A DNA stretch of 64,000 bases from an uncultured Lentisphaeria bacterium (GTDB lineage Bacteria > Verrucomicrobiota > Lentisphaeria > Victivallales > Victivallaceae). The notes beneath the pieces are model-generated. The model saw nothing but the letters and a program-made list of their open reading frames with translations, was not told the origin of the DNA and made no database searches. A program made the translations under genes and the position numbers. The stretch is from NCBI GenBank assembly GCA_903863035.1, contig CAIPAT010000107.1, positions 1 through 64,000 on the forward strand, given 5' to 3'. Positions 22,168-62,837 of the stretch are shown here, one piece after another. Position 1 is the stretch's first letter. Every line of letters starts with the position of its first letter.

Positions 22168-24195
22168 ATGCTCGACTTGCAATTGTCAAAACTTGCGGCG
22201 AATACAATTCGCGTATTGTCCGCTGAAGCCGTTCAGAAGGCTAAATCCGGCCATCCCGGCATGCCGATGGGATGTGCCGACATCGCGTTCACGTTGTGGT
22301 ACAAATACATGAAACACAATCCGAAGAACCCCAAATGGCTGGGACGCGACAGATTTATCCTTTCCGCCGGACATGGTTCCATGCTGGAATATTCGCTGCT
22401 TCACCTGTTCGATTACGGTCTGCCAATGGACGAACTCAAGGCGTTCAGACAGTGGGGCAGCAAGACTCCGGGACATCCGGAATATAATCATACCGCCGGA
22501 GCCGATATCACCACCGGTCCGCTGGGCAGCGGTTTTGCTTCAGCTGTCGGAATGTCCATGGCAAACAAATACTTTGCCGCCAAAACCGGCCTGGACAAAA
22601 CCGGACTGGTTGACAACAAGATATTCGTCATCTGCGGCGACGGCTGCATGATGGAAGGCGCTACTGCCGAAGCCGCCTCTCTCGCCGGACATCAGAAACT
22701 TGACAACATCATCTGTTTCTATGACGATAATTCAATCACCATCGAAGGTTCAACCAACCTCTCGTTTTCTGAAGACGTAGGCGCCAGATTTACCGCATAC
22801 GAATGGCGCATAATCAATGTCGCCAATGCCAATGATATCGAACAGTGCGACAAGGCGCTGTCCGAGGCGGTTGTTTCCGATGGCCGCCCTACCTTGATCA
22901 TCGGCAAAACCAAGATCGGTTTCGGCGCACCCAACAAGCAGGGTAAATCTTCAGCGCACGGCGAACCGCTCGGAGTGGAAGAAGTCGAAGCTACCAAGAA
23001 AAACCTCGGTATGCCTGCGGAACCGTTCTTTGTGATGCCGGAAGTTAAAGCATTCATCGATAAACGTGTCGAGTCTCTTATAACGGAAGCCGCCGGATGG
23101 GACAAGAAATTCCAGGCATATATCAATGATAATCCGGACAAAGCCGAACTTATTTCTAAAATGCTCAACCGTACTGTTCCGGAAAATATCCTGGAAGAGC
23201 TTCTTAAAGTAACTCCGGTCAGCAAGCCGATTGCCAGCCGCGCTTCAGGCGGTGAAGTTCTTCAGCGTGCCGCCGCGCTCGTACCGTCACTTATCGGCGG
23301 TGCCGCCGACCTCGCGCCGTCCACCAAGACCGACATTAAAGGTGCTGCCGATTTCAATCCTGAAAATCGCGGCGGATGCAATTTCCATTTCGGTGTGCGC
23401 GAACTGGCGATGGGCATGGCCGCCAACGGTATGGCTCTGTACGAAACTATTATTCCTTACACTTCCACTTTCTTCGTATTCTCTGATTATATGAAACCGG
23501 CAATCCGTCTGGCGTCAATTCAGGGACTGCATGAAATCTATGTATTTACCCATGACTCATTCTATGTCGGCGAAGACGGCCCGACTCACGAACCGATCGA
23601 ACAGATGGCGATGCTGCGTTCGATTCCCGGCGTTACCGTGCTCCGTCCCGCGGAAGCTCATGAAGTTGCTCATGCCTGGGCTGCGGCGTTGCAAGCCAAA
23701 GGCCCGGTCGCAATTCTGCTTACCCGCCAGGATCTCGCTCCGTTTACCCCGGAAATGGCAGCCAGAATTGATGTCGCCAAAGGCGCTTACGTGCTCAGTG
23801 ATGATGAAGATTTCGATATAATCATGATTGCTACCGGTTCTGAAGTCAACCTGGCGCTTAAGGCCGCCGATTTGATCCGCGCCAAAGGCATCAAGGTCAG
23901 AGTGGTGTCCATGCCGTCGCAGGAGTTATTCCTGAAGCAGGACGTTGACTATCAGGAATCGGTTCTGCCGAGTTACTGCTTGAATCGTGTTTCGATCGAA
24001 GCAGGCTGCACTTTCGGCTGGCATCGTTTTGTCGGCAGAGACGGGCTGGCGATCGGAGTGGATACTTTCGGCGCGTCCGCACCATATAGTGTACTTGCTG
24101 AAAAATTCGGTTTCACCCCTGAACTGGTTGTCGAAACCATCAAGAAATATTTCGGCTGCGGCTGCAATTGCGGAGGCGGTTGCTGTAACGGATAA
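22168..24195 (+). CDS. tkt: Transketolase with an unusual Cys/Gly-rich tail
   Basis: A 675-residue thiamine-diphosphate enzyme that transfers two-carbon units in the non-oxidative pentose phosphate pathway. It has the N-terminal G-H-P-G-M-P-M-G (about 28-35), the TPP motif G-D-G-C-M-M-E-G (about 157-164), the pyrimidine-domain [14 protein letters not shown] (about 462-475), and a C-terminal transketolase domain with A-T-G-S-E-V-N-L. A clear AAAGGATG ribosome binding site precedes the start. The last residues, [16 protein letters not shown], add five cysteines in 13 residues after the normal fold end. Such a tail is not a usual transketolase feature and may bind metal or be a lineage trait. 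A strong terminator follows. Confidence 0.96.
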
Positions 24196-36935: not shown

Positions 36936-37034
36936 ATTTTTTCGGCTCGAATTTTAATAATAAATTTTATTTTCAGTTTTTTGCGTTATATTATACTTTT
37001 TGAATTTAACAACACTATACATCAGCATAAGCAT

Positions 37035-37868
37035 ATGGAAAAACAAAGAACGTTAAAAGATACAGCTTTTCTTTCGGGGATTGCGCTGCATACCGGTGCC
37101 AGGGCCACTTTGCGGATACTCCCGGCCGCTCCCGATCACGGCATAACTTTCCGGAGAATCGATCTGCCGGAACGCCCAGAAGTCAAAGCGCTTGCGTCAA
37201 ATGTTGTTGATGTGCGCAGGGGAACGACAATTGCATCCGGCAAGGCGGTGGTTTACACCATCGAGCATATCATGTCCGCGCTTCATGTCTGCATGATTGA
37301 CAATGCTGTGGTAGAGATGGACGGGCAGGAACCGCCAATTGCCGATGGCAGCGCATTGCCGTATCTGGAAATGATAATTAAGGCTGGAAACGTCGAGCAG
37401 GATGCGCCTGTTCAGTACTGGACCGCTAAACAAACTATTTTTCTAGAAGAAGGCGAGACTAAGATGGTGCTTGCCCCGTCGGATACGCTGAAGATAAGCT
37501 GTCTGGCATCATTTAAAGGCTGCCCGATTGATCCGCAGTATTTTTCGTTGCAGATTGATCAGAAATCATATTCCGCGCAGATAGCTTCCGCCAGAACATT
37601 CGTTCAGTTTCGCGACCTGGAACAACTGCTGGCGATGGGACTGGTCAAGGGCGGCAGTCTTGACAACGCTGCCATCCTGCATGACGGCGCGATCATCTGC
37701 AAAGAATCGCTGCGCTTCCGTGACGAGATTGTCCGACATAAGATTCTTGATATTGTCGGCGACATTTTCCTTTGCGGTCACCGTGTAAAAGCTAATATTA
37801 TTGCAATTAAGCCGGGACATCCAATGAATGTCAAACTTGCGCTTGAAATGCTTAAACAGATCTCATGA
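37035..37868 (+). CDS. lpxC: UDP-3-O-acyl-N-acetylglucosamine deacetylase
   Basis: A 277-residue zinc hydrolase carrying out the committed step of lipid A synthesis. Key blocks: the N-terminal F-L-S-G-I-A-L-H-T-G, then V-Y-T-I-E-H-I-M-S-A-L with the zinc-ligand His near 79, I-A-D-G-S-A-L-P-Y near 102, and the late R-H-K-I-L-D-I-V-G-D (about 233-242) and K-P-G-H-P-M-N-V-K (about 260-268). Start ATG 37035 gives the normal N-terminus; a frame open further upstream lacks support and neither has a clear ribosome binding site. fabZ follows after 44 bp. Adjacent lpxC and fabZ are the same pair that is fused into one protein in some other phyla. Confidence 0.95.
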   Translation: MEKQRTLKDTAFLSGIALHTGARATLRILPAAPDHGITFRRIDLPERPEVKALASNVVDVRRGTTIASGKAVVYTIEHIMSALHVCMIDNAVVEMDGQEPPIADGSALPYLEMIIKAGNVEQDAPVQYWTAKQTIFLEEGETKMVLAPSDTLKISCLASFKGCPIDPQYFSLQIDQKSYSAQIASARTFVQFRDLEQLLAMGLVKGGSLDNAAILHDGAIICKESLRFRDEIVRHKILDIVGDIFLCGHRVKANIIAIKPGHPMNVKLALEMLKQIS

Positions 37869-37912: not shown

Positions 37913-38836
37913 ATGATCGGTAAAATTTTAGGACTGAAAGAAATAAGAGAAATTCTACCCTATCGCTATCCGATGCTGATGCTTGACCGGGCTGTCGCCG
38001 AAAGCGAAACTAAATATGTCGGAGTAAAGAACATCAGCATGAATGAGTTGTATTTTCAGGGGCATTTTCCGAACCATCCGATTATGCCGGGAGTGCTCCA
38101 GGTTGAAGCCATGAAACAACTGGCCCAGATTGCGGTACAGAAAAAACTCGATCCCTCCGGCAAAAATGATGTTTATATGAAAATTGTTGAGCGGGTTAAA
38201 TTCCGCAAACCTAATTTTCCCGGCGACCGCTTGAAAATTGATGTTGAAGTCGAATCTGTAACAGATACTGAAGCCATTATAACTGCCAGTACCAGCAATA
38301 ATTCCGGTCTTACCTGCCAGGCGAAGATCACGTTAGGTGTCCGCCACAGACAATATCCGGATGCCATGCCGCCGCTTTTCAATGAATATGATAAAGCCGC
38401 GAGTACCGCCAAAGATATCAATGAGATAATGTCGATCGTTCCACACCGCTATCCGTTTTTATTAATTGACAATATCGTTAAAATTGAAGGCGATCACATC
38501 GTCGCGATTAAAAATACTACGGCAAATGAAGAGATTTACTGCGGCTATACTCCTGATTACGCAGTGCTTCCTGAATCTTTGCAATGCGAGATTATCGCTC
38601 AGGCCGGTTGTGCTTGTGTGCTTTCCCGTCCGGAAAATAAGGGAAAACTTGGATATTTCATGTCCATTGACCGCGCCGAAGCGTTCCATCCGATTTTTCC
38701 AGGAGACCAGATGGTTTGCGAGCTCGATATTCCGCCTGGCCAGTCCCGTTTCGGCAAGGGTACCGGCAATATCAAAGTTGGCGATAAAATAGTTTTTGCT
38801 ATTACTTTGATGTTTGCCATCGTAGATCCGGCCTGA
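37913..38836 (+). CDS. fabZ: FabZ-type (3R)-hydroxyacyl-ACP dehydratase with two hotdog domains
   Basis: A 307-residue protein, about twice the usual FabZ length (about 145). Domain 1 (about 5-145) has I-L-P-Y-R-Y-P-M-L-M-L-D-R, then Q-G-H-F-P-N-H-P-I-M-P-G-V-L-Q-V-E-A-M, so the catalytic His and Glu are present. Domain 2 (about 163-305) begins I-V-P-H-R-Y-P-F-L-L-I-D but replaces the G-H-F-P block with C-G-Y-T-P; a Glu remains in L-Q-C-E-I-I-A-Q. Domain 2 is therefore probably inactive or altered. The enzyme dehydrates 3-hydroxyacyl-ACP in fatty acid synthesis. A strong GGAGAGG site precedes the ATG. It stands just after lpxC, and the two would compete for 3-hydroxyacyl flux. Confidence 0.92.
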   Translation: MIGKILGLKEIREILPYRYPMLMLDRAVAESETKYVGVKNISMNELYFQGHFPNHPIMPGVLQVEAMKQLAQIAVQKKLDPSGKNDVYMKIVERVKFRKPNFPGDRLKIDVEVESVTDTEAIITASTSNNSGLTCQAKITLGVRHRQYPDAMPPLFNEYDKAASTAKDINEIMSIVPHRYPFLLIDNIVKIEGDHIVAIKNTTANEEIYCGYTPDYAVLPESLQCEIIAQAGCACVLSRPENKGKLGYFMSIDRAEAFHPIFPGDQMVCELDIPPGQSRFGKGTGNIKVGDKIVFAITLMFAIVDPA

Positions 38837-46336: not shown

Positions 46337-47470
46337 ATGTTTAAATATGCAAAAATTCTGTTACCGGTAATGTTCCTTCTTGCGGCATGGTCTTCCCATG
46401 CGGTGACAGTTGGAGAAATGGCGCCGGGACTCCAGAATATTCAATGGATTAAAAATGGTCCGGTTGATATCTCAAAAGGGAAAGGTAAATACGTTTACGT
46501 AATTGAGTTCTGGGCAACATGGTGTCCGCCGTGCATAGAATCCATTCCGCACTTAACCGCGCTGCAGGAAAAATATAAGACGCAAGGTTTGATCATCACC
46601 GGCATCAGCATTGATCAGGATCTTCAAATTGCACAAGCGTTTACTGCTCCCAATGCTGAAATGAAATATAACGTCGGTTTTGATCCGGCAGGTAATACAT
46701 CAAAGCAATATATGAAAGGAGACAGCGGAATTCCGATCGTTTTCGTAATTGATAAGAGCGGAACTGTCGCCTGGATTGGACATCCGATGGAACTGGATAA
46801 CATTCTTGACGCTGTTCTTGCCGGAACTTTTGATGCGAAAAAAGCCAATCAGCGACTTAAACTCAGCAAAAAGCTGATGCAGCAGATGATGAGCGAAAAT
46901 TATGGAGAAGCGCTAAAAGTTAGCGACGAACTGCTTGAACTGGAACCGGGGAATGAACAGGCTGTCGGCATGAAAGCGTATTTACTTCATCTGTCCGGAA
47001 AAGATGATTTGGCAATCGATTTTGTGAACGAACAGATTAAATCTTATCCGGACAATACCGGACTTCTGAATACCAGAATCAGCATCCTCTTTCAGTTGAA
47101 TAAATATCAATATCTGGAGAAAGAATGTGATTTACCGGCAGTAAGCCGCGTGAATCCAATGGTTTTGGATGCGATTGCCCGGGGAATGCTTAACCCGGAG
47201 CCAGGCCGGCGGGAAGACACAATGATTCTTCAAGTTGCGCTAAAACTGGTTGAAACCGCCTATTCCAAGTGTAAGTTCAAAGACGACGAACAGAAGTCGC
47301 TTGTCGCGGCAACTCTGGCCCGCTGCTATTTTAAGTTAAACAAACCAGTACAGGCGGTTGCAACGCAGAAGCTCAGCATTGGGTTGACTAAAGATAGAAA
47401 TAAAATTAAAAAACTGGAAAGTGCGCTTAAAGAATATCAAACCGCCGGCAAAAGCGGAATTAACAAATAA
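46337..47470 (+). CDS. Secreted TlpA-like thioredoxin-fold protein with a helical C-terminal region
   Basis: A 377-residue exported protein: signal peptide with I-L-L-P-V-M-F-L-L-A-A-W-S-S-H-A (cleavage about residue 22). The thioredoxin domain (about 25-170) has E-F-W-A-T-W-C-P-P-C-I-E-S-I-P-H-L, a C-P-P-C redox site, and the cis-Pro region G-I-P-I-V-F-V-I. The C-terminal half (about 180-375) is helical with TPR-like spacing (for example A-L-K-V-S-D-E-L-L-E-L-E-P-G-N). It probably reduces or isomerises disulfides in the periplasm. The first repeat-protein gene starts 11 bp downstream, so the two are in one unit. The start is ATG 46337; a longer open frame lacks a site. Confidence 0.85.
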   Translation: MFKYAKILLPVMFLLAAWSSHAVTVGEMAPGLQNIQWIKNGPVDISKGKGKYVYVIEFWATWCPPCIESIPHLTALQEKYKTQGLIITGISIDQDLQIAQAFTAPNAEMKYNVGFDPAGNTSKQYMKGDSGIPIVFVIDKSGTVAWIGHPMELDNILDAVLAGTFDAKKANQRLKLSKKLMQQMMSENYGEALKVSDELLELEPGNEQAVGMKAYLLHLSGKDDLAIDFVNEQIKSYPDNTGLLNTRISILFQLNKYQYLEKECDLPAVSRVNPMVLDAIARGMLNPEPGRREDTMILQVALKLVETAYSKCKFKDDEQKSLVAATLARCYFKLNKPVQAVATQKLSIGLTKDRNKIKKLESALKEYQTAGKSGINK

Positions 47471-47481
47471 AGGAGAATATT

Positions 47482-47919
47482 ATGCGTAAACTATTATTAT
47501 GGCTCGTCATGTTTCTGGCTTTCACCATGGTGCACGCGTCTTCATCTGATGCAATTGAAGTTTTCATTTCCGCCGGCAATTCAGCTTTACTTTCCACGAC
47601 CGGGAAAGTATTCCGCATGAATATGACTTCCGGTATTGTGATTTATGATAATTTAAACCGGGTTGTACAAATCGGCGATGTCTCCATAACTTACGATGAA
47701 TTAAGCAGGGTAATGCAGATCGGCAATGTTTCAATCAATTATGACTTATCCAGCAGGGTTATCAAGATCGGCAATACCGCAATTGCTTATGATATTTCAA
47801 ATCGGTTAGTCAAGATCGGGGATGCCGCGATTACTTATGACGAACTCAGCCGGGTTATCAAGATCTCCGGCAAAACTCCCGAAAACCTCCGTTTCGCCAC
47901 TGTTCCAGGGCGGACATAA
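47482..47919 (+). CDS. Secreted protein of five 16-residue YD-type repeats (copy 1)
   Basis: A 145-residue protein: signal peptide (L-L-L-W-L-V-M-F-L-A-F-T-M-V-H-A), a conserved lead-in S-D-A-I-E-V-F-I-S-A-G-N-S, then five tandem units. One unit reads V-S-I-T-Y-D-E-L-S-R-V-M-Q-I-G-N; the others vary at surface positions while keeping I-x-Y-D, R-[VL] and I-[GS]. The motif resembles the Y-D-x-x-x-R-[LV] core of Rhs/YD repeats but with a 16-residue period and no toxin domain. The end is I-S-G-K-T-P-E-N-L-R-F-A. The 48-bp units drift between repeats. AAAGGAG precedes the ATG. A paralog lies 142 bp downstream. Function unknown; a beta-solenoid or strand stack at the surface is plausible. Confidence 0.8.
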   Translation: MRKLLLWLVMFLAFTMVHASSSDAIEVFISAGNSALLSTTGKVFRMNMTSGIVIYDNLNRVVQIGDVSITYDELSRVMQIGNVSINYDLSSRVIKIGNTAIAYDISNRLVKIGDAAITYDELSRVIKISGKTPENLRFATVPGRT

Positions 47920-47999
47920 GATAAGGGCAGGGGGATTGCGCCATAATTGCTCCACTCCTTCCCCGGTTGATATTTGGTGTTGAAATGAGTTCATATTGC

Positions 48000-48028
48000 T
48001 TGATTTTCCAGTTCCTTAAGTATATTAT
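48000..48028 (+). promoter_or_regulatory. Candidate promoter of the second repeat-protein gene
   Basis: TTGATT (48000-48005) and TATTAT (48023-48028, within TATTATAATG) are spaced by 17 bp, ahead of an AAAGGAGAG ribosome binding site and ATG 48062. It implies the second copy has its own promoter. Confidence 0.45.
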
Positions 48029-48061
48029 AATGCGCTATCAATAAATAAAAGGAGAGTTGTT

Positions 48062-48505
48062 ATGCGTAAACTACTATTATGGTTCGTAATGTTTTTTGTG
48101 GTCTCCGCTATTGTACACGCTTTACCATCTGATGCGATTGAGGTTTTTACTTCTGCCGGCAATTCAGTCTCTATTTCCACTGCCGGGAAAGTATTCCGTC
48201 TGAATATAGCATCCGGCGTTGTTATCTATGATCTTTCAAACCGGGTTACCCAGGTCGGTAATACTTCTGTCACTTATGACAGAGTAACAAACCGGGTAAT
48301 TAAGATTGGTGATATTCCAGTCAATTATGACGCATCCAACCGGGTAATCAAGATTGGAAATACCGTAATTGCCTATGACTTTGCCAACCGCATGTTCAAA
48401 ATTGGCGATGCCTCGATTACTTATGACGTAATCAGCCGGGTCAAAAATATTACCGGCAAGATTCCTGACAACATCCGTTTTGCCTCTGTTCCGGAACAAC
48501 CTTAG
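48062..48505 (+). CDS. Secreted protein of five 16-residue YD-type repeats (copy 2)
   Basis: A 147-residue paralog of the protein at 47482-47919, sharing the signal peptide start M-R-K-L-L-L-W, the lead-in S-D-A-I-E-V-F-T-S-A-G-N-S, K-V-F-R-L-N, five repeat units and the end I-T-G-K-I-P-D-N-I-R-F-A. A typical unit is I-P-V-N-Y-D-A-S-N-R-V-I-K-I-G-N. The second unit is one residue longer (Y-D-R-V-T-N-R). Divergence is spread along the length, so the duplication is not recent. The stop TAG lies inside the stem of the terminator hairpin. Function unknown. Confidence 0.8.
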   Translation: MRKLLLWFVMFFVVSAIVHALPSDAIEVFTSAGNSVSISTAGKVFRLNIASGVVIYDLSNRVTQVGNTSVTYDRVTNRVIKIGDIPVNYDASNRVIKIGNTVIAYDFANRMFKIGDASITYDVISRVKNITGKIPDNIRFASVPEQP

Positions 48506-48557: not shown

Positions 48558-49289
48558 TTATTGAAGCATAAAATCAAGCGATACTACTATTTTTATTACT
48601 TTTAGCGGTGATTTAGTATCAAAAACACCGTAATCAGACACATCGGCTGAATCCGGTGCTGTGATCTGAATGATTCCCTGCCGGGCGGCAAGAAGCCGTT
48701 TGATCTGTCCGCCGCAGTTCCCGGCCATTATCCTGGCGCGCTCTTCCGCATTTCTGGTCGCGCCGGCAATCAACCCTTGTTTGAATTTTTCCAGATCAGA
48801 GATGAAATAATCCGGTGGATTGACTGCAACATCCAGTCCTTCAGCCAGTAATGAATATAAATCCTTCTGTCCGGAAGTAACCAATTCGATATTATTTGAC
48901 CTCACAACGATGCATTGCGACAAGGAGTAGTACTGAATATCGTTGGTATCCTTGCCGTTAATTTTTTTGTATATCTTATTAACTGTCATGCCGTTAACCG
49001 CCATTTCCTCATCTTTAAACCCATACGACTTGACAGCACTCGACACCTTGGCGCAACACAGTTTAAGGTTCTTGTAGGCCGAGACTAGATCAGGATCACT
49101 GCAACTCGCAATAGCGGTAAATGTACCAATATCAGACTTAACTGTCTTTTCGGCGTAGCCCTTGACGGATAACTTGTTTTCGTGCTGAATCCTTAGAAAG
49201 AATTTTGACAACAACTGTGCCGAAATAACCATTCCTCCAGACAGCAAAGTACTGGCAACTATAATTCCAATCAGATTTTTTGTATTCAT
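48558..49289 (-). CDS. SIMPL-domain (DUF541) protein, membrane-anchored
   Basis: A 243-residue protein with an N-terminal membrane segment (I-G-I-I-V-A-S-T-L-L-S-G-G-M-V-I, about 7-22) and a periplasmic SIMPL/DUF541 domain. Typical features are L-S-V-K-G-Y-A-E-K-T-V-K-S-D-I-G near 39-54, a helical middle, and A-R-I-M-A-G-N-C-G-G near 186-195. Bacterial members form ring-like oligomers, and roles are poorly known. It converges on the repeat-protein gene. No operon partner. Confidence 0.85.
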   Translation of the reverse strand: MNTKNLIGIIVASTLLSGGMVISAQLLSKFFLRIQHENKLSVKGYAEKTVKSDIGTFTAIASCSDPDLVSAYKNLKLCCAKVSSAVKSYGFKDEEMAVNGMTVNKIYKKINGKDTNDIQYYSLSQCIVVRSNNIELVTSGQKDLYSLLAEGLDVAVNPPDYFISDLEKFKQGLIAGATRNAEERARIMAGNCGGQIKRLLAARQGIIQITAPDSADVSDYGVFDTKSPLKVIKIVVSLDFMLQ

Positions 49290-49723: not shown

Positions 49724-51925
49724 ATGAGAATCTGCGGTCGATGCCAGGCAATATATACTGAACATGCCGTATACAAGGTCAAGCTTGATGCTATTAATTA
49801 CGATAGCGATTCTTATTTAAAAGAAAATCTTCAGCATAATTACGGCATCTGCAATGTTAAATTTGATTATTTTGACGGTTTGCTGATAATTACTTACAAT
49901 CCGCTGATCATTTTGCAAGAACGGATTGATAAGATTCTGTCGACACCCGGTTTTATCATTGAAGATTCATATTTCCGTTTTTTGATAAATTTCCTTAAAG
50001 TACATGCAAAAGTACTTCGTTTTTCAACTGTTCTTCTGTTGCTCATCTTCGCATGGCTGATTTTCTTTAAATTCGGATCAAACCAGTTCCGCCAGCCATT
50101 TAATTACCGTGCTATAACATTAATTAATACGTATTATATTACTATCAACCTCGTCATACTGTTTATTTGCTCCTTTTCCATATATAATGGCATTAAGCAG
50201 GCATTCAAATATAAGAGATTTAATGTTTATCTGCTGGTACTGCTTGCTGTATGCGGCGCAGTTCTTTCCGGATTTCTGTTTGAAGCTTCAAATTTTCTGC
50301 TGGTGCTGCTGCTAGTCGAATCGCTGGAAGATTTCATAAAATGCAGATCGTCGGAAGAGGTTGCGGCGGCGGCTGTCGCCAGTGCTAAAAATGCCTTTGT
50401 GATCATTGACGGAACTTCCCGCAAAATTCCTGTACATAATTTGATTCCCGGCCAGCTTGTTGATGTAAAACAAGGTATGATTGTTCCGGTAGACGGAGTT
50501 GTTGTCAGCGGGAATGGACAAATCAATGAAGCCGCTATTTCCGGGGAAAACTCATTTAATTCCAAATCAAGCGGCGACAAGGTCTATGCAGGAACTCTGC
50601 TGGAAAACGGGTCATTGGTGGTCAAAGCGGTTTCAGTCGGACATGACACTGCCATCGGTAATATCGCAAAACTGATTGAAGGGGCGGCAGACAACGCTGA
50701 TGCACGGCAAGGTTTCCAGAAAGCTGTTGACAGATATTCTGTTTACCTGACAATTATTGTAATCGCTTTCTCAATCGTTGCATTTTTCGTTTCATTTTCG
50801 GTTTTAGATATGGAACTATTTGAATCCGTAGAACGCAGTGTTGCAATTCTTTTTGTGGCCTGCCCTTGTGCGTTGATTCTCAGTACTCCAACTGCAATCC
50901 ATGCCGGAATCTGGATTGCCGCGCGCAATGGGATTCTGTTCAAGGATGGCGGGGTTATGGAATATTTTGCCAGGACTACCGCGCTGCTGGTTGACAAAAC
51001 CGGCACCCTCACCCATGCCAGTCCGGTAGTTGCTGAAGTAAAGACTTTTGGCGACACTGAATTGAAGGATATTCTATTTATAGCAGCGACTGTTGAGCGA
51101 AACTCTTTCCACCCCCTCGCCCTGGCGGTCTGTGAATATGCAGCGCAGCGCAATATTCAATTCGGCGGGGTCGAGCAGTATATTGAGCTTGAAGGCGGCG
51201 GCGCTTGTGCTGTAATTGACGGGAAAAAATATAAAGTCGGGGCCAGATGGCTGATGGATGACGGAAGAGAGATCACCCCGGAAATAAACAACTGGATTCA
51301 GGAAGCGGCAAAACAGGGACTGGTCACCGCGCTGGTGGCGGATGAAACAAGAATTACCGGCGCCTTTACTTTTACCGACAGATTAAGAGAAGAAGCTCCG
51401 GCGGTGATTCAGCAACTGCGTGCGCTTGGGATGAATAAAATCATTATGATCACCGGAGACAACTGCGCGGCTGCGGAACGCATCGCAAATTCACTGCATC
51501 TCGATGACTATTTTGCGGAATGTATGCCGGAAATGAAACTGCAAAAACTTTATGAACTGAAAAAGACTGAAAAATATGTTGCTATGATCGGTGACGGCAT
51601 TAATGACGCTCCGGTACTGGCCGCGGCAGATGTCGGGATCGCGATTGCAGGAACTGGAGCTGACGCCGCGATCGCCGCCGCCGATATTGCACTGACCGGG
51701 GAAGGGCTGGATGAGCTTTCCAAGTCTTACAGCATCAGCAAACGCGTATTTTTTGCAATACGCGTCAATCTGTTCTTTTCACTGCTGGCAAGCCTGGCAA
51801 TGATGTTTCTGGTAAGCACAGGAATATTCAGCTTGATGACCGGAACTCTGATCTATGCCGCCTGCTCGGTTCTAGTGTTAATCAACTCTTATCTGCCGGC
51901 GATGATTCCGGTCAAGAAGTTTTAA
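49724..51925 (+). CDS. P1B-type heavy-metal-transporting ATPase
   Basis: A 733-residue membrane ATPase. Residues 1-90 form a heavy-metal-associated-like domain with a C-G-R-C near the start. Eight membrane segments are suggested. TM6 carries the ion-pathway C-P-C in F-V-A-C-P-C-A-L-I-L-S-T-P near 384. The phosphorylated Asp is in D-K-T-G-T-L-T near 425, the P1B-specific His-Pro is in F-H-P-L-A near 464, and the hinge is G-D-G-I-N-D-A-P near 625. TM8 (I-Y-A-A-C-S-V-L-V-L-I-N-S-Y) has neither the M-x-x-S-S of copper pumps nor the D-x-G of zinc pumps, so metal specificity is unclear. It overlaps the convergent purH stop by 4 bp. Confidence 0.92.
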   Translation: MRICGRCQAIYTEHAVYKVKLDAINYDSDSYLKENLQHNYGICNVKFDYFDGLLIITYNPLIILQERIDKILSTPGFIIEDSYFRFLINFLKVHAKVLRFSTVLLLLIFAWLIFFKFGSNQFRQPFNYRAITLINTYYITINLVILFICSFSIYNGIKQAFKYKRFNVYLLVLLAVCGAVLSGFLFEASNFLLVLLLVESLEDFIKCRSSEEVAAAAVASAKNAFVIIDGTSRKIPVHNLIPGQLVDVKQGMIVPVDGVVVSGNGQINEAAISGENSFNSKSSGDKVYAGTLLENGSLVVKAVSVGHDTAIGNIAKLIEGAADNADARQGFQKAVDRYSVYLTIIVIAFSIVAFFVSFSVLDMELFESVERSVAILFVACPCALILSTPTAIHAGIWIAARNGILFKDGGVMEYFARTTALLVDKTGTLTHASPVVAEVKTFGDTELKDILFIAATVERNSFHPLALAVCEYAAQRNIQFGGVEQYIELEGGGACAVIDGKKYKVGARWLMDDGREITPEINNWIQEAAKQGLVTALVADETRITGAFTFTDRLREEAPAVIQQLRALGMNKIIMITGDNCAAAERIANSLHLDDYFAECMPEMKLQKLYELKKTEKYVAMIGDGINDAPVLAAADVGIAIAGTGADAAIAAADIALTGEGLDELSKSYSISKRVFFAIRVNLFFSLLASLAMMFLVSTGIFSLMTGTLIYAACSVLVLINSYLPAMIPVKKF

Positions 51926-53037
51926 TGATGCGAGAATATCCGTTCCGGTGCGTAATAGAGCGCCACCCCAAGTTCATTGGCGCGCTTGATTACTTCGGCG
52001 TCACGAAGTGAACCGGCCGGACAGACAATTGCGGTTATACCGGCTTCCGCCGCGACTTCAACCGCATCCGCAAACGGAAAGAACCCGTCGCTGGACATGA
52101 CTGAATTCTTAATGGAATTATCGCCCTGATACTTCTGACGATATTTGGCGATGGCCTGTTCGACCGCCCCTACCCTGTCCTGTTCTCCTGTTCCGACAGA
52201 AATGGTTTGACCATTCTGAGCTATTACCACGCCATTCGATCTGACGCTTAAGTTTACATACCAGGCGAACAGCAAATCGGCAAGCTGTGCCGGAGTTGCG
52301 CTGTGTGCGGAAACTTGTTTTCCAACCTTGGCATTTTCGGACTCGGCGGATTTCAAATCGCTTACACTTCTGAGTGAGGTCGTGAGCGGAGCGGCAATAA
52401 TCAGCGAACCGTCGGCCAGGACTTTGATCGTGTTTGACTGCGCATCCCCCTGCCCTGTGAACTTTGGCAGACGGGATATATCGCCGCACTGAATAATGCG
52501 GATATGCCTGTTCAGTTTAAAGGTCTCGCCATCATTAAAAATATCAAGTACACCGGCTTCGTATGCCGGAGCTACAACACATTCCACAAAAGACCCCATG
52601 ATTTCTTTCGCCGTTGCAGTATCAACTACAGTATTAAATGCTACGGCGCTGCCGAAAGCGGCGCGGGCGTCAGCATCGCGAGCCTTGATGTAAACCTGGC
52701 GGATGTCTTCACCGCCGCACTGCACCGCCGCCCCGCTGGGATTGACATGTTTCATCACCGCACAGGCCGGCCGGTCGAAAAACTTAACAATGTTCAGTGC
52801 ATAGGAAATATCTTCCAGGTTGGTCTGGGAAAGGCCGCTTTTGCCATCTTTCAAAATCTGCATATCGCCAATAGGACAGACTGTATCCGCCGGCTTATAA
52901 TATGCCGCCGGCTGGTGCGGGTTGGTACCGTAGCGCAGATCCTGTACTTTTACATATTCTCTGCCGCCGATAACCGTTGTCGCCGGAAAATTGCCGACAT
53001 TTTTAGACAAATACGAATTTCTGTTAAGTTCCGCCAT
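51922..53037 (-). CDS. purH: AICAR formyltransferase, standalone
   Basis: A 371-residue protein equivalent to the C-terminal transformylase part of PurH, which adds the last carbon in IMP synthesis. It begins with about 25 residues, then D-L-R-Y-G-T-N-P-H-Q-P-A. The active-site Lys-His pair is in V-M-K-H-V-N-P-S-G (about 93-101), with A-F-G-S-A-V-A-F-N near 122, then G-E-Q-D-R-V-G-A-V and S-S-D-G-F-F-P-F-A-D-A-V. The N-terminal IMP cyclohydrolase (MGS) domain of bifunctional PurH is absent, so ring closure must be done by another gene. Start ATG has a weak GGAGA site 7 nt upstream. It is divergent from tmk. Confidence 0.9.
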   Translation of the reverse strand: MAELNRNSYLSKNVGNFPATTVIGGREYVKVQDLRYGTNPHQPAAYYKPADTVCPIGDMQILKDGKSGLSQTNLEDISYALNIVKFFDRPACAVMKHVNPSGAAVQCGGEDIRQVYIKARDADARAAFGSAVAFNTVVDTATAKEIMGSFVECVVAPAYEAGVLDIFNDGETFKLNRHIRIIQCGDISRLPKFTGQGDAQSNTIKVLADGSLIIAAPLTTSLRSVSDLKSAESENAKVGKQVSAHSATPAQLADLLFAWYVNLSVRSNGVVIAQNGQTISVGTGEQDRVGAVEQAIAKYRQKYQGDNSIKNSVMSSDGFFPFADAVEVAAEAGITAIVCPAGSLRDAEVIKRANELGVALYYAPERIFSHH

Positions 53038-58010: not shown

Positions 58011-58051
58011 GCTTAGGAGCCGTCAAGTTTATTTCTTGACAGCTCCTAAGC
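58011..58051. repeat. Short hairpin, collapsed copy of the element at 3821-3987
   Basis: A near-perfect hairpin (G-C-TTAGGAGC ... GCTCCTAA-G-C) with a 13-nt inner region. On the opposite strand it equals the left 26 bases of the 3821-3987 element joined straight to that element's right end, so the inner part (about 3849-3977) is missing. The stop codon of the convergent mscS gene (58046-58048) lies within it. It may act as a terminator here. Confidence 0.75.
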
Positions 58052-60325
58052 AAGCGTCACGCTGTTTTCTTTAAACTGCCGCTCTATTTCTTCACGTATC
58101 TTGCTTTCAGAGTCAGTGTTCCTTCTCAGGTCCTTGAACCATAGTCTAAGGCATAAATCCAATTTACTGGATCCAATATCCATGAACAGTACGCGCGGCG
58201 GCGGATGCACCAGCACATTATTGTCATTTGTAGCTATTTCCAATAACAGACGTTTAACTTTCGCGATGTCTGAATCATGTGTCACCCCTACCCTGATATC
58301 GCGTCGTATGACGTTGCCAGTCAATGTCCAGTTCCTGAAGTTTTTCGAAACCACAACCGAGTTCGGCAGGTTGATAATAGCGTCATCAAAAGTCTTGATC
58401 ACTGTTGAACGGATACTGACTTTCTGAACGATCCCCCAGGTGCCGTCAAACTCAATCGTATCACCGGGACGCACCGACTTTCCGGCCAGCAGAACAATGC
58501 CGCAGATAAAGTTTTCAATAATGTCCCGCAACCCGAAACCAAGTCCCATACTCATCCCGCCCAGTACCACCAGAACAGAGTTGGGGGGGACGCGCAAAAG
58601 CATCAATACAAAAACAATATAAATAATCCAGGCCACATAAGTACCCAGTGTCAGGAACGAGGCCAGCAAGCCGGAATCAGCATTTTCCGAATAAAACAGC
58701 CTGATTACATTTTTTATGGTTGAGAGGATAAAAAATAATATCAGCGCGGCAACCAGACTGCAGAAAATAGCCCATACACTGACCTGGACAAATGCCACGC
58801 CAGGACACAAGTTTGATTCCATAAAACTTTCGAGCAGATTTTGCACATTAAATTGTATAGCAGTCCAATAAATCAGCCCGCCGAGGATGAACAGCCATTT
58901 CATCGGGATCAAGATCATGAATATGAAAGACGCCGCAATTTTCTGCGAAGTGGTTTCAGGCTTAAATCTGGCCGCCAGCGCGGTAAGTGAAATTCCCGCC
59001 TGAATGCCGATCGCCGCCAGGAACCAGACCATGGTCACAGTTATTGACATAAAGGCATAACCATAAGCAGCCATGACAGCCCCCCCCAGGGTAGTCACTA
59101 CAGTAAAAAATCCAAGCAGGCGGTCAAGAGCTGGCAATTTATGTTTAAACATATAATAGGCGGTTACAATAGCAACAGGAATATTAACCACGGTCCAAAT
59201 GACAATCAACGGACGGTAAGTCACAACCAGCGTAAAAAGCAGACTGCCGAAAACATACAGTATCAACAGCGGCAGATAGAGTTTGAATACTCCTTTATAC
59301 ATTTCGGGTTTGAGCCGTATTTTCAGGGTGAAGAGCAGAAATGACAAGCTGACAAAAATTACTGCAATCCGGCAGAAAAAGCTGTATTCAACCACGTTTG
59401 TCCAGAAATAAGTGCCAAACATCAGCAATCCGATTCCAAGCAGGATCCATCCTTGTTTTAAAATCGTAATCTCGCCGTGGTTTACCGGGATCATTTTAAA
59501 TTTTTGCAGTTTTTTGTAAAGCAAACGTCCAAACAGCATAAACAACGCTCCGCCGATGACCGCCAGCGCGATAAACTTCAACCAGAAATCATATTCATCC
59601 GGTATTTGTATCGCCAGATTTAACGGAATATCTCTCAACCAGATATAAAATTGAAGTTTAAGCACCACAAAACAATTGATAATATCCGATTGAGGACTGA
59701 ACAGCATTTTCTTTAAAACAGCATCATTGCGTTTTTTTCCGGATTCCATTACGACGGCAATCTTCTCACGTATCTTTTCTGCAATCTTGACCTGGACATC
59801 CACCATTTGAGCGATTGTACGAAGTTCTGTATTAAATTGAGCCATTTTCTTCAGAGTGCCTGTCCTTGCCACCAATTGTTCGGCAGTGAAATATTGCGGA
59901 TTGGCCTGTTCAAGCGCCACACTCAATTCGTCATAACGGTCTATTTCTGATTTCAGATTATCTCTGCCTTGTTTGATACGGGAAAGTCTTGCTTCAAAAA
60001 GGGCATTCAAATCAAGGATTTGCTTGTTATATACCGAAATAGAAATTCCGAGAATTGCATTATCAGGCTGGGCCCACAGCAGAAAATTCAATTCACTGAT
60101 ACGCTTTTCCGCGTCCTGGCATATTCTGGAAAAGACAGCAAGCCTGGCTTCGGCATTCTCTCTGTATTTAACCAGATCTTCATTGGCGTTATTAATCAAT
60201 GCTTGATGTATTTCACCAATCATCGTTGACCAGTTCTCGCGACTGTCCGTCAATACTGAATTACTCGCATGCAGCGGCAGCGCATGGAAAACTAAAAACA
60301 ACAGCAGCAGAAAGAAAACTCTCAT
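58046..60325 (-). CDS. MscS-family mechanosensitive channel (copy 1)
   Basis: A 759-residue channel of the large (MscK/YbdG-like) type: signal peptide (M-R-V-F-F-L-L-L-L-F-L-V-F-H-A-L-P-L-H-A), a periplasmic helical region (about 30-225), about ten hydrophobic segments (about 245-590) and the MscS core. The core has V-V-L-G-G-M-S-M-G-L-G-F-G-L-R-D-I-I-E near 588-606, the lipid-facing R-P-G-D-T-I-E-F and the beta domain (N-L-P-N-S-V-V-V-S-K). It releases solutes under osmotic shock. Its ATG follows C-C-G-G-A-G. The stop lies inside the hairpin repeat. It is a tandem duplicate of the gene at 60466-62745, most similar through the MscS core. Confidence 0.92.
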   Translation of the reverse strand: MRVFFLLLLFLVFHALPLHASNSVLTDSRENWSTMIGEIHQALINNANEDLVKYRENAEARLAVFSRICQDAEKRISELNFLLWAQPDNAILGISISVYNKQILDLNALFEARLSRIKQGRDNLKSEIDRYDELSVALEQANPQYFTAEQLVARTGTLKKMAQFNTELRTIAQMVDVQVKIAEKIREKIAVVMESGKKRNDAVLKKMLFSPQSDIINCFVVLKLQFYIWLRDIPLNLAIQIPDEYDFWLKFIALAVIGGALFMLFGRLLYKKLQKFKMIPVNHGEITILKQGWILLGIGLLMFGTYFWTNVVEYSFFCRIAVIFVSLSFLLFTLKIRLKPEMYKGVFKLYLPLLILYVFGSLLFTLVVTYRPLIVIWTVVNIPVAIVTAYYMFKHKLPALDRLLGFFTVVTTLGGAVMAAYGYAFMSITVTMVWFLAAIGIQAGISLTALAARFKPETTSQKIAASFIFMILIPMKWLFILGGLIYWTAIQFNVQNLLESFMESNLCPGVAFVQVSVWAIFCSLVAALILFFILSTIKNVIRLFYSENADSGLLASFLTLGTYVAWIIYIVFVLMLLRVPPNSVLVVLGGMSMGLGFGLRDIIENFICGIVLLAGKSVRPGDTIEFDGTWGIVQKVSIRSTVIKTFDDAIINLPNSVVVSKNFRNWTLTGNVIRRDIRVGVTHDSDIAKVKRLLLEIATNDNNVLVHPPPRVLFMDIGSSKLDLCLRLWFKDLRRNTDSESKIREEIERQFKENSVTLA

Positions 60326-60465: not shown

Positions 60466-62745
60466 CTATGCGATTAACACATTGTTTTCCTTGAACCGCC
60501 GCTCGATTTCTTCGCGAATTCTGCTTTCCGAATCAGTATTTTTTCTCAGATCCTTGAACCAGAGTCTAAGAGAAAAATTCAATTTGCCGCCCACCATATC
60601 CATAAACAGCACGCGCGGCGGAGGATGCATCAATACATTACTGTCATTAGCCGCTATTTCCATTAACAAACTCTTAACTTTCGCGATGTCTGAATCTTTT
60701 AACACATCGACTTTGATATCGCGGCGAATAATGTTGCCGGTCAATGTCCAGTTTCTGAAATTTTTCGAAACCACAACCGAGTTCGGCAGATTGATAATCG
60801 CATCGTCAAAAGTTTTAATCACGGTCGAACGGATACTGACTTTCTGAACGATCCCCCAGGTGCCGTCAAACTCAATCGTATCACCGGGACGGACAGACTT
60901 GCCGGCCAGCAGGACTATGCCGCAGATAAAGTTTTCAATGATGTCACGCAAACCGAAACCGAGTCCCATACTCATCCCGCCCAGTACCACCAGAACAGAG
61001 TTTGGAGGTACACGCAAAAGCATCAGCACAAAAACTGTATAACCGATCCAGACCAGATAAGTACCCAGCGTCAGGAATGAAGCCAGCAATCCGGAATCCG
61101 CATTTTCCGAGTAAAACAGTCTGATAACATTTTTTACGGTTGAAATAATAAAAAACAGTATCAGTGCGGCAGCCAGACTGCCAATGATATCCCAGATGCT
61201 GATCTGAATAAATTGAACCCCCGGACATAGATTTGACTCCAGAAATTTTTCCAGCAGATTTTGAACATTGAATTGAGTTGCAGTCCAGTAAATCAGACCG
61301 CCGATAATCAGAATCCATTTCATGGGAATCAAAATTATAAACACAAAAGACGCCGCAATCTTTTGCGATGTGGTTTTCGGATTGAACCTTGACGCCAGAG
61401 AGGTCAGCGAAATGCCAGTTTGAATTCCGACCGCCGCCAGAAACCAGACCATTATTGCCGTTATCGCTATAAACGCATACCCATAAGCCGCCAGAACTGC
61501 ACTGCCCAGCGTAAGCAGAACTGTAATCAATCCCAGCAGACGGTCCAGTACCGGTAATTTATATTTTAACATGTAATAGCCGGTTGCGGCAGCAACCGGA
61601 ATATTCACTACTGTCCAGATGAAAATCAACGGACGGTAAGTCACAACCAGCGTCCATAATATGCTGCCAAAAATATACAGCAGCAGCAGCGGCAGATAGA
61701 GCTTGAATGAATTTCTGTAAAATTCCGGCTTAAGCCGGATCCGCAAGTTGAAAAGCAGAAATGCAATGCTGATAAAGATCATCGCAAGCCGGCAGAAAAA
61801 GCTGTATTCAATGACAGTCGTCCAGAAATAAGTGCCGAACATCGTCAAAGCCGCGCCAAGACAAATCCAGCCGGGAGTGAAAACAATGAATTTACTGTTA
61901 TACTCCGAAATTATTTTGAACTTCTGCAATTTAGTGTAAAGCAGACGCCCAAGGAGCATAAACAGGGAGCCGACTAATACCGCCAGCCCCGTAAATTTCA
62001 GCCAGAACTCTTTTGCCTCTGGAATCTGTATCCAGATATTATTCGGAATATCCCGGAACCAGAAATAAAAAGATAACCTGAGCGAAGCCAAACAATTGAC
62101 AATATCGGATTGCGGGTTGAACAGCATTTTTTCAAATACTTCGTTGTTGCGTTTTTTGCCGGATGCCATCACTGCGGCAATATTTTTTTGTATTTCTTCT
62201 GCAGCCTTCAGCTTTAAGTCCATCAGTGCGGCAATCTGCTCCAATTCTGCAATGATCTGTTGTAATTTTTTATGAGACGCCTCTTTATCAGCTAACTGGT
62301 TTGTAGTAAAATACTTCAATTTTACATGCTCCAGCATTAAACGTAATTTGCTAAAACGATTAATTTCTGATTCCAGGCTTTTCCTGGACGACGCAATACT
62401 ATTGAGTTTTGCATCAAAAAAATTATTCAAATCGGCAATTTGCCTGTTGTATACCGAAATGGAAATTCCGAGAATCGCATCGTCCGGCTGCAGCCATAGC
62501 AGAAAATCTAATTCACTGTTGCGCTTTTCAGTATCTTCGCATATCTGGGAAAAAGCGGTAACCCGGTTTTCAATACTTTCTCTGTATTTAACCAGGTCTA
62601 GTGTAGTGCGTCCAGCCAGTGAATGATGTAATTCGTCAATCATTGTTGACCAGTTCTCGTGATCATCGGTCAATACCGAATCATCCGCATGCAATGGCAG
62701 TATATTTAATAATAAAAACAGCACCAGCAGAAAATAAAAATTCAT
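60466..62745 (-). CDS. MscS-family mechanosensitive channel (copy 2)
   Basis: A 759-residue paralog with the same plan: signal peptide (F-L-L-V-L-F-L-L-L-N-I-L-P-L-H-A), a periplasmic helical domain with different detail from copy 1, about ten membrane segments and the MscS core (V-V-L-G-G-M-S-M-G-L-G-F-G-L-R-D, then T-W-G-I-V-Q-K-V-S-I-R-S). The start is set at ATG 62745 because G-G-A-G lies 5 nt upstream and matches copy 1; an extension to 62766 is less likely. The C-terminal end differs (N-V-L-I-A). It follows prmA by 92 bp on the same strand. Confidence 0.92.
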   Translation of the reverse strand: MNFYFLLVLFLLLNILPLHADDSVLTDDHENWSTMIDELHHSLAGRTTLDLVKYRESIENRVTAFSQICEDTEKRNSELDFLLWLQPDDAILGISISVYNRQIADLNNFFDAKLNSIASSRKSLESEINRFSKLRLMLEHVKLKYFTTNQLADKEASHKKLQQIIAELEQIAALMDLKLKAAEEIQKNIAAVMASGKKRNNEVFEKMLFNPQSDIVNCLASLRLSFYFWFRDIPNNIWIQIPEAKEFWLKFTGLAVLVGSLFMLLGRLLYTKLQKFKIISEYNSKFIVFTPGWICLGAALTMFGTYFWTTVIEYSFFCRLAMIFISIAFLLFNLRIRLKPEFYRNSFKLYLPLLLLYIFGSILWTLVVTYRPLIFIWTVVNIPVAAATGYYMLKYKLPVLDRLLGLITVLLTLGSAVLAAYGYAFIAITAIMVWFLAAVGIQTGISLTSLASRFNPKTTSQKIAASFVFIILIPMKWILIIGGLIYWTATQFNVQNLLEKFLESNLCPGVQFIQISIWDIIGSLAAALILFFIISTVKNVIRLFYSENADSGLLASFLTLGTYLVWIGYTVFVLMLLRVPPNSVLVVLGGMSMGLGFGLRDIIENFICGIVLLAGKSVRPGDTIEFDGTWGIVQKVSIRSTVIKTFDDAIINLPNSVVVSKNFRNWTLTGNIIRRDIKVDVLKDSDIAKVKSLLMEIAANDSNVLMHPPPRVLFMDMVGGKLNFSLRLWFKDLRKNTDSESRIREEIERRFKENNVLIA

Positions 62746-62837
62746 AACAGCTCCGGTTATAATCAATCTACTATGATAAATAGCAATTCAATACTAATAA
62801 ATTGAAGCAAGTTACTCTATAATTCAAATATATATTG

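What the first reader, a model, noticed from the sequence alone, without database searches (positions are those of the whole stretch)
47482..48505. Pair of secreted proteins built of a 16-residue YD-type repeat
Both proteins have a signal peptide, a shared lead-in and five units of the form x-x-[IV]-x-Y-D-x-x-x-R-[VLM]-x-x-[IV]-G-[DN]. The Y-D/R-[LV] core is like Rhs/YD repeats, but the period is 16 and no toxin, RHS core or cleavage motif follows. They sit next to a periplasmic C-P-P-C thioredoxin. I know of no described family with this compact form.
Basis: partly seen in the sequence, partly recalled or inferred. Interest (0 to 1): 0.6.

Follow-up and report, generated by a model that had tools for sequence, protein, structure and literature searches.

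The report
Small secreted proteins of compact YD-hairpins
Two neighbouring genes in an uncultured lake bacterium encode small secreted proteins made almost only of five short copies of the hairpin that builds the giant hollow shells of Rhs toxins and animal teneurins; they are too small to form a shell, and similar stand-alone proteins turn up in a few distant relatives.

Summary
Two intact paralogous genes (63% identical) each encode a signal peptide, a conserved ~32-residue lead-in, five 16-residue units (one is 17 in the second protein) and a 17-residue tail. Both are kept in the two other genomes of the genus (dN/dS about 0.16-0.43). Relatives with the same architecture occur in another class of the phylum: G191, G463 and G446, with 5-6 units.

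The proteins are not filed in Pfam or NCBIfam, but the unit is a YD/Rhs hairpin. AlphaFold gives two strands per unit. Foldseek's top 16 solved matches are all teneurin, Rhs or Tc YD-shells. A sequence profile alone ranks teneurins first. One relative passes Pfam's RHS_repeat cut-off. The 16-residue period is not new in itself: 13 of 18 full-size Rhs reading frames of this phylum carry one such short unit about 140-175 residues before the core motif, and teneurins have a run of them. New are free-standing secreted arrays of only this unit.

The thioredoxin neighbour is found only in this genus. The function is inferred, not shown: an open beta-ribbon acting as an envelope or extracellular binding/structural protein. 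New variant of a known kind.

The parts
47482..47919 (+). Protein A, 145 aa: signal peptide, lead-in, five 16-residue YD units, tail
   Evidence: ORF; orthologues in G001 and G002, dN/dS 0.16 and 0.23; AlphaFold model pLDDT 81-86 over the repeats
47482..47538 (+). Signal peptide of A (MRKLLLWLVMFLAFTMVHA), Sec type with V-H-A before the likely cleavage site
   Evidence: Read from the sequence; helix 2-17 in the model; conserved in orthologues. No signal-peptide program was available
47539..47631 (+). Lead-in / N-cap of A, three predicted strands
   Evidence: Strands 26-30, 34-39, 42-45; shared with B and recognisable in G191, G463, G446
47632..47865 (+). Five YD units of A, two strands per unit
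47866..47916 (+). C-terminal tail of A (SGKTPENLRFATVPGRT)
   Evidence: Conserved in the six genus proteins; low model confidence
48062..48505 (+). Protein B, 147 aa, paralogue of A with the same layout
   Evidence: ORF; 63% identical to A; kept in G001 and G002, dN/dS 0.43 and 0.33
48062..48121 (+). Signal peptide of B (MRKLLLWFVMFFVVSAIVHA)
   Evidence: Read from the sequence; aligned with A
48215..48451 (+). Five YD units of B; unit 2 has 17 residues
48504..48551 (.). GC-rich hairpin and T-run between the convergent genes B and SIMPL, a likely terminator
   Evidence: RNAfold -22.8 kcal/mol; not picked up by the consensus scan, so weak
46337..47470 (+). Periplasmic thioredoxin (CPPC) with TPR repeats; ends 11 bases before A; neighbour, not a required partner
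   Evidence: AhpC-TSA/Redoxin/TPR in Pfam; same position in G001 and G002; widespread elsewhere without A/B
48558..49289 (-). SIMPL (DUF541) protein, convergent neighbour, same position in G001 and G002
   Evidence: Pfam PF04402, 59.8 bits

Best explanation
A and B are secreted, free-standing arrays of the compact form of the YD (Rhs) repeat. Each 16-residue unit, x-x-[IV]-x-Y-D-x-x-[GNS]-R-[VI]-x-[KQ]-[IV]-G-[DN], folds as strand, DxxxR turn, strand, tight G-[DN] turn. Five units stack into one open, curved beta-ribbon of about ten strands, with a lead-in hairpin at the N-end and a short tail at the C-end. With about ten strands against 76 in an Rhs cocoon, the ribbon cannot close a shell or hold a cargo. 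The most likely job is as a small periplasmic, outer-membrane or extracellular binding or structural protein that presents a flat beta surface to glycan or to another envelope protein. A and B are an old duplicate pair, possibly working together. Well supported: repeat, signal sequence (read by eye), conservation, relatives. Supported by prediction: YD-hairpin fold. Inferred only: open ribbon as the active form, envelope binding, A-B partnership.
For: Two-strand unit with pLDDT 81-86 over the repeats and the same strand pattern in an independent relative, at lower confidence. Foldseek ranks 1-16 for A are all teneurin/Rhs/Tc YD-shell structures with probability 0.89-1.00; for G191, 13 of the top 15 are teneurins or the bacterial teneurin-like protein. 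The nine-sequence profile alone puts teneurins at ranks 1-16 of the PDB, with an ungapped run of 16-residue units YDLRDRITRLGDVQYR/LDEDGFLRQRGTEIFE. Pfam RHS_repeat: G446 relative 23.1 bits, above the cut-off of 22; G191 20.8. The own-genome matches below the threshold are Rhs proteins. Signal peptide, N-cap and repeats recur in G191, G463, G446. Purifying selection: dN/dS 0.16-0.43; third-position bias between the units of G463. Envelope role by analogy only: YD-repeat proteins in the Akkermansia outer-membrane proteome (PMC4960237), secreted YD-repeat Bd0109 of Bdellovibrio (PMC3818213), teneurin YD-shell thought to bind heparin glycans (PMC6425310).
Against: Models rest on 7 sequences, mean pLDDT 71 and 62. 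No Foldseek match reaches E <= 0.001; TM-scores are 0.32-0.46, with large rmsd. Pfam RHS_repeat is below the cut-off for A (15.7) and B (12.6) and absent for G463. No binding partner, location or expression is known.
Confidence: 0.6

Rival explanations
1. Curli-like fibre pair: A and B are major and minor subunits whose strand-loop-strand units stack end to end into extracellular fibres, as in CsgA/CsgB.
For: Same gross design as CsgA/CsgB (own knowledge): two adjacent paralogues of about 150 aa, signal peptide, lead-in, five imperfect strand-loop-strand repeats. Units near-identical in G463. Open beta edges in the predicted ribbon.
Against: No Curlin repeat match in Pfam for any member. No Csg-type secretion gene among the neighbours. 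Structure search gives YD-shells, not amyloid or solenoid fibres. G191, G463 and G446 have a single gene each in the regions read.
Confidence: 0.13
2. The resemblance to YD repeats is convergent; this is another hairpin-repeat wall-binding solenoid, like the choline-binding LytA type.
For: Weak Foldseek matches to C-LytA at rank 17. Small two-stranded units are common in unrelated repeat folds. MORN proteins appear in the viral structure search.
Against: Y-D-x-x-G-R core and hairpin register coincide with RHS units; a relative passes the RHS_repeat cut-off; all best structural and profile matches are YD proteins.
Confidence: 0.15
3. Partner, decoy or immunity factor for the Rhs proteins of the same genome, pairing with their shells.
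For: The own genome has many Rhs genes (38 RHS_repeat matches).
Against: G002 and G463 carry these proteins but have no RHS_repeat match at all in genomes 91% and 94% complete. The genes are not next to Rhs genes.
Confidence: 0.04
4. Remnants of a degraded Rhs gene.
For: Unit homologous to Rhs; short; next to no other Rhs part.
Against: Intact frames with signal peptide and N-cap, pair and synteny kept in three genomes, dN/dS well below 1, same architecture in another class.
Confidence: 0.02
5. Substrate or partner of the adjacent TlpA-like thioredoxin.
For: 11 bases between the genes, so probably one transcript; order conserved in three genomes.
Against: A and B have no cysteine; the thioredoxin-TPR gene is common in the order without A/B; distant relatives have other neighbours.
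Confidence: 0.04

Closest known systems
YD/RHS repeat (Pfam PF05593), as in bacterial Rhs and Tc toxins and animal teneurins
   Same: YDxxGR core, one two-stranded hairpin per unit, best structural matches, one family member above the Pfam cut-off
   Different: Unit 16 residues instead of the dominant 20-21; only 5-6 units; secreted alone; no propeller or plug domain, RHS core, autoprotease motif or toxin
Pre-core short unit of Rhs proteins (e.g. YDAAGRLTKEGDKSYAYGWLDKV, YDADGNLTRKGEMTFEYDAENRL) and the 16-residue run of teneurins
   Same: Identical 16-residue spacing; found 142-174 residues before the core motif; ungapped alignment with teneurin
   Different: There one to three units inside a large shell; here the whole protein
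Bd0109 of the Bdellovibrio hit locus (PMC3818213)
   Same: Periplasmic or secreted YD-repeat protein without a described toxin, beside a small secreted partner
   Different: 13 YD/YE sequences, a pilin-like N-terminus and pilus-linked genes; no link to pili seen here.
Streptomyces/Embleya free-standing YD protein (L020:5998-6456)
   Same: Small protein made only of compact YD units, unannotated in the Embleya record
   Different: 17-residue units, seven of them, no signal peptide, no Pfam match
Curli subunits CsgA/CsgB (own knowledge)
   Same: Adjacent secreted paralogues of about 150 aa with five strand-loop-strand repeats
   Different: Different repeat sequence; no Curlin match; no secretion genes

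Membership tests
Pfam RHS_repeat (PF05593) | Score of at least 22 bits | tested here: not met
   A 15.7, B 12.6; relatives: G191 20.8, G463 no hit, G446 23.1, met
Pfam RHS_repeat (PF05593) | YDxxGR core with one two-stranded hairpin per unit | tested here: met
   Motif; predicted strands; Foldseek
Rhs / polymorphic toxin protein | RHS core with autoprotease motif and variable C-terminal toxin | tested here: not met
   Proteins end 17 residues after the last unit; no Pfam or NCBIfam match for core or toxin
Rhs / Tc / teneurin YD-shell | Closed shell with cavity | tested here: not met
   About 10 repeat strands per protein against 76 in RhsA (PMC8765631); closure by oligomerisation was not tested
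Curli (CsgA/CsgB) | Curlin repeat in Pfam | tested here: not met
   Not among matches with E <= 10 for six proteins
Curli (CsgA/CsgB) | Extracellular amyloid fibres | not testable with these tools
   Needs purified protein and microscopy
Small secreted compact-YD family proposed here | Signal peptide + N-cap + 5-6 compact YD units, nothing else | tested here: met
   Nine proteins aligned end to end; three of them in another class

The most novel reading that the evidence does not exclude
A and B are a two-component extracellular fibre or matrix system made from YD hairpins: the toxin-shell hairpin reused as an open, polymerising beta-ribbon, a curli analogue of different ancestry.
Probability: 0.1. 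Interest if true: 0.75.

Novelty: new variant of a known kind. Interest (0 to 1): 0.4.

Why it matters
YD repeats are known as walls of large hollow shells that carry toxins or, in animals, build teneurin receptors. A natural, soluble-sized array of five hairpins is a minimal YD protein. It would show what the hairpin does without a shell, give a small model for folding and binding studies (for example the proposed glycan binding), and bears on whether shells grew from small secreted arrays or the arrays split off from the pre-core part of Rhs proteins.

Tried and rejected
Full-length search with protein A alone found no relative in genome contigs or viral contigs; nothing convincing in phages or plasmids. 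PHROG matches (phrog_6064, E 2.7e-5 for A) are short, uncharacterised and not reproduced with the G191 relative. The PADLOC match to a restriction enzyme and the NCBIfam matches for A and B are far below any cut-off. A mixed-register alignment (A4) was discarded because MAFFT shifted the repeats. The hhalign result between compact and Rhs units (96.9%) is not used as main evidence, because both window sets were chosen with a YD pattern. G042's secreted YD-type protein (L034) has period 20 and no N-cap and is not counted as a member. An Rhs-partner role was rejected, and a thiol-based link to TlpA.

Full report
What is there. The window holds two ORFs in the same direction, 47482-47919 (A, 145 aa) and 48062-48505 (B, 147 aa), each with a good ribosome-binding site. 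They are 63% identical from end to end. Each has a Sec-type signal peptide ending in V-H-A, a lead-in of about 32 residues, five YD units and a 17-residue tail. The period is 16, except for one 17-residue unit in B. The self-match at lag 16 is far outside shuffled controls, and the array is visible in the DNA as 48-base units.

They are real genes. The genome search gives the pair in the two other genomes of the genus (G001, G002) and in none of the 57 other genomes of the family that were searched. All three genomes have the order thioredoxin-TPR > A > B < SIMPL. A orthologues are 74% identical to A, against 63% for B, so the duplication is older than the split of these species. Nei-Gojobori dN/dS between orthologues is 0.16-0.23 for A and 0.30-0.43 for B: purifying selection. 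The G001 and G002 contigs are deposited as uncultured Lentisphaeria; their isolate names (AlinenLipids, Umea) suggest freshwater metagenomes.

Distant relatives. A profile of the six genus proteins found G191; a wider profile found G463 and G446 in the same other class. G191 encodes 162 aa with five clear units and one degenerate unit; G463 165 aa with six near-identical units; G446 140 aa with five units. All keep signal peptide, lead-in and compact units. In G463 the protein units are almost identical while the DNA units differ mostly at third positions, so selection holds each unit. None of these three has the thioredoxin or SIMPL neighbour within the region read.

Is it a YD/Rhs repeat? 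Pfam RHS_repeat is below the cut-off for A (15.7), B (12.6) and G191 (20.8), above it for G446 (23.1; cut-off 22), and absent for G463. AlphaFold from seven sequences predicts two strands per unit with pLDDT 81-86 across the repeats of A (mean 71). The G191 protein gives the same strand pattern with lower confidence (mean 62). In the PDB by fold, ranks 1-16 for A are all teneurin, Rhs or Tc YD-shell proteins (probability 0.89-1.00, E 0.003-0.1, TM 0.32-0.46), and for G191 13 of the first 15 are teneurins or the bacterial teneurin-like protein. Independently of any model, the nine-sequence profile ranks teneurins at places 1-16 among all PDB sequences (E 0.005-0.2). Each line is weak alone; together they place the unit in the YD family with good confidence.

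What the 16-residue form is. In Rhs proteins of the same phylum the YD spacing is mostly 20-21 (108 of 187 spacings under 40), and 16 is rare (6). When the second motif is relaxed, 13 of 18 Rhs reading frames with a recognisable core motif carry one 16-spaced pair, always 142-174 residues before that motif (several are near-copies and two loci overlap others). In teneurins the profile aligns without gaps to YDLRDRITRLGDVQYR/LDEDGFLRQRGTEIFE/YSSKGLLTRV, again 16-residue units. So the compact unit is the short hairpin of the pre-core region of YD-shells, and A and B are free-standing arrays of it. Whether the array came from an Rhs gene or the reverse is not decided.

How it may work. Each YD repeat is a pair of strands joined by a hairpin, and many repeats form a spiralling sheet (PMC6425310); RhsA uses 76 strands (PMC8765631). 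About ten strands give an open curved ribbon, not a container. With a signal peptide, no cysteine, no catalytic motif and no toxin, the most likely role is binding or structure at the envelope or outside the cell. Analogies are YD-repeat proteins in the outer-membrane proteome of Akkermansia (PMC4960237), the secreted YD-repeat protein Bd0109 (PMC3818213), and proposed heparin binding of the teneurin shell (PMC6425310). These are analogies, not tests.

Rivals. A curli-like fibre pair fits the gross design but has no Curlin match and no secretion genes. An Rhs-partner role is contradicted by G002 and G463, which have no RHS_repeat match. A TlpA substrate is unlikely: no cysteines, and thioredoxin-TPR genes occur in 38 of 61 relatives, and none of the nine best of them outside the genus has A/B beside it.

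Wider context. Free-standing YD arrays exist in other forms: a 17-residue, seven-unit protein without signal peptide in Streptomyces (L020), with a homologue in Embleya lying under no listed gene (that gene table is incomplete), and a secreted period-20 protein in G042 of the same family. No paper in the searched library describes a compact secreted YD family, which is an absence in that library only.

Verdict. Real and conserved; a new variant of a known repeat kind with unknown function. Interest 0.4.

Noticed in passing
window 37913-38836 (+): A 307-aa protein that looks by eye like two FabZ-type hotdog dehydratase domains fused head to tail, directly after an LpxC-like gene (36981-37868).
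   Followed up: no
window 22168-24195 (+): Transketolase with an odd cysteine/glycine-rich C-terminal tail ([14 protein letters not shown]).
   Followed up: no
window 51922-53037 (-): A 371-aa protein resembling only the AICAR formyltransferase half of PurH, without the IMP cyclohydrolase half.
   Followed up: no
window 58046-60325 and 60466-62766 (-): Two adjacent long MscS-like channel paralogues, nearly identical in the C-terminal half.
   Followed up: no
L034:1423-1920 (-), genome G042 of the same family: Another small secreted YD-type repeat protein, period 20 (YYDESGRVTGRATRNGNTT), without the N-cap of the present family.
   Followed up: partly
L020:5998-6456 (+), Streptomyces hilarionis: Free-standing 153-aa array of seven 17-residue YD units, no signal peptide, no Pfam match; homologue in Embleya (69.5% identity) lies under no listed gene.
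   Followed up: partly
13 Rhs reading frames such as L012, L008, L025: One 16-residue YD unit recurs at a nearly fixed distance (142-174 residues) before the RHS core motif, while other YD units are 20-21 residues apart.
   Followed up: yes
window 48236-48499 (-) and antisense of the array in L003, L006, L030: Long open frames antisense to the repeat arrays, probably a by-product of codon composition.
   Followed up: no
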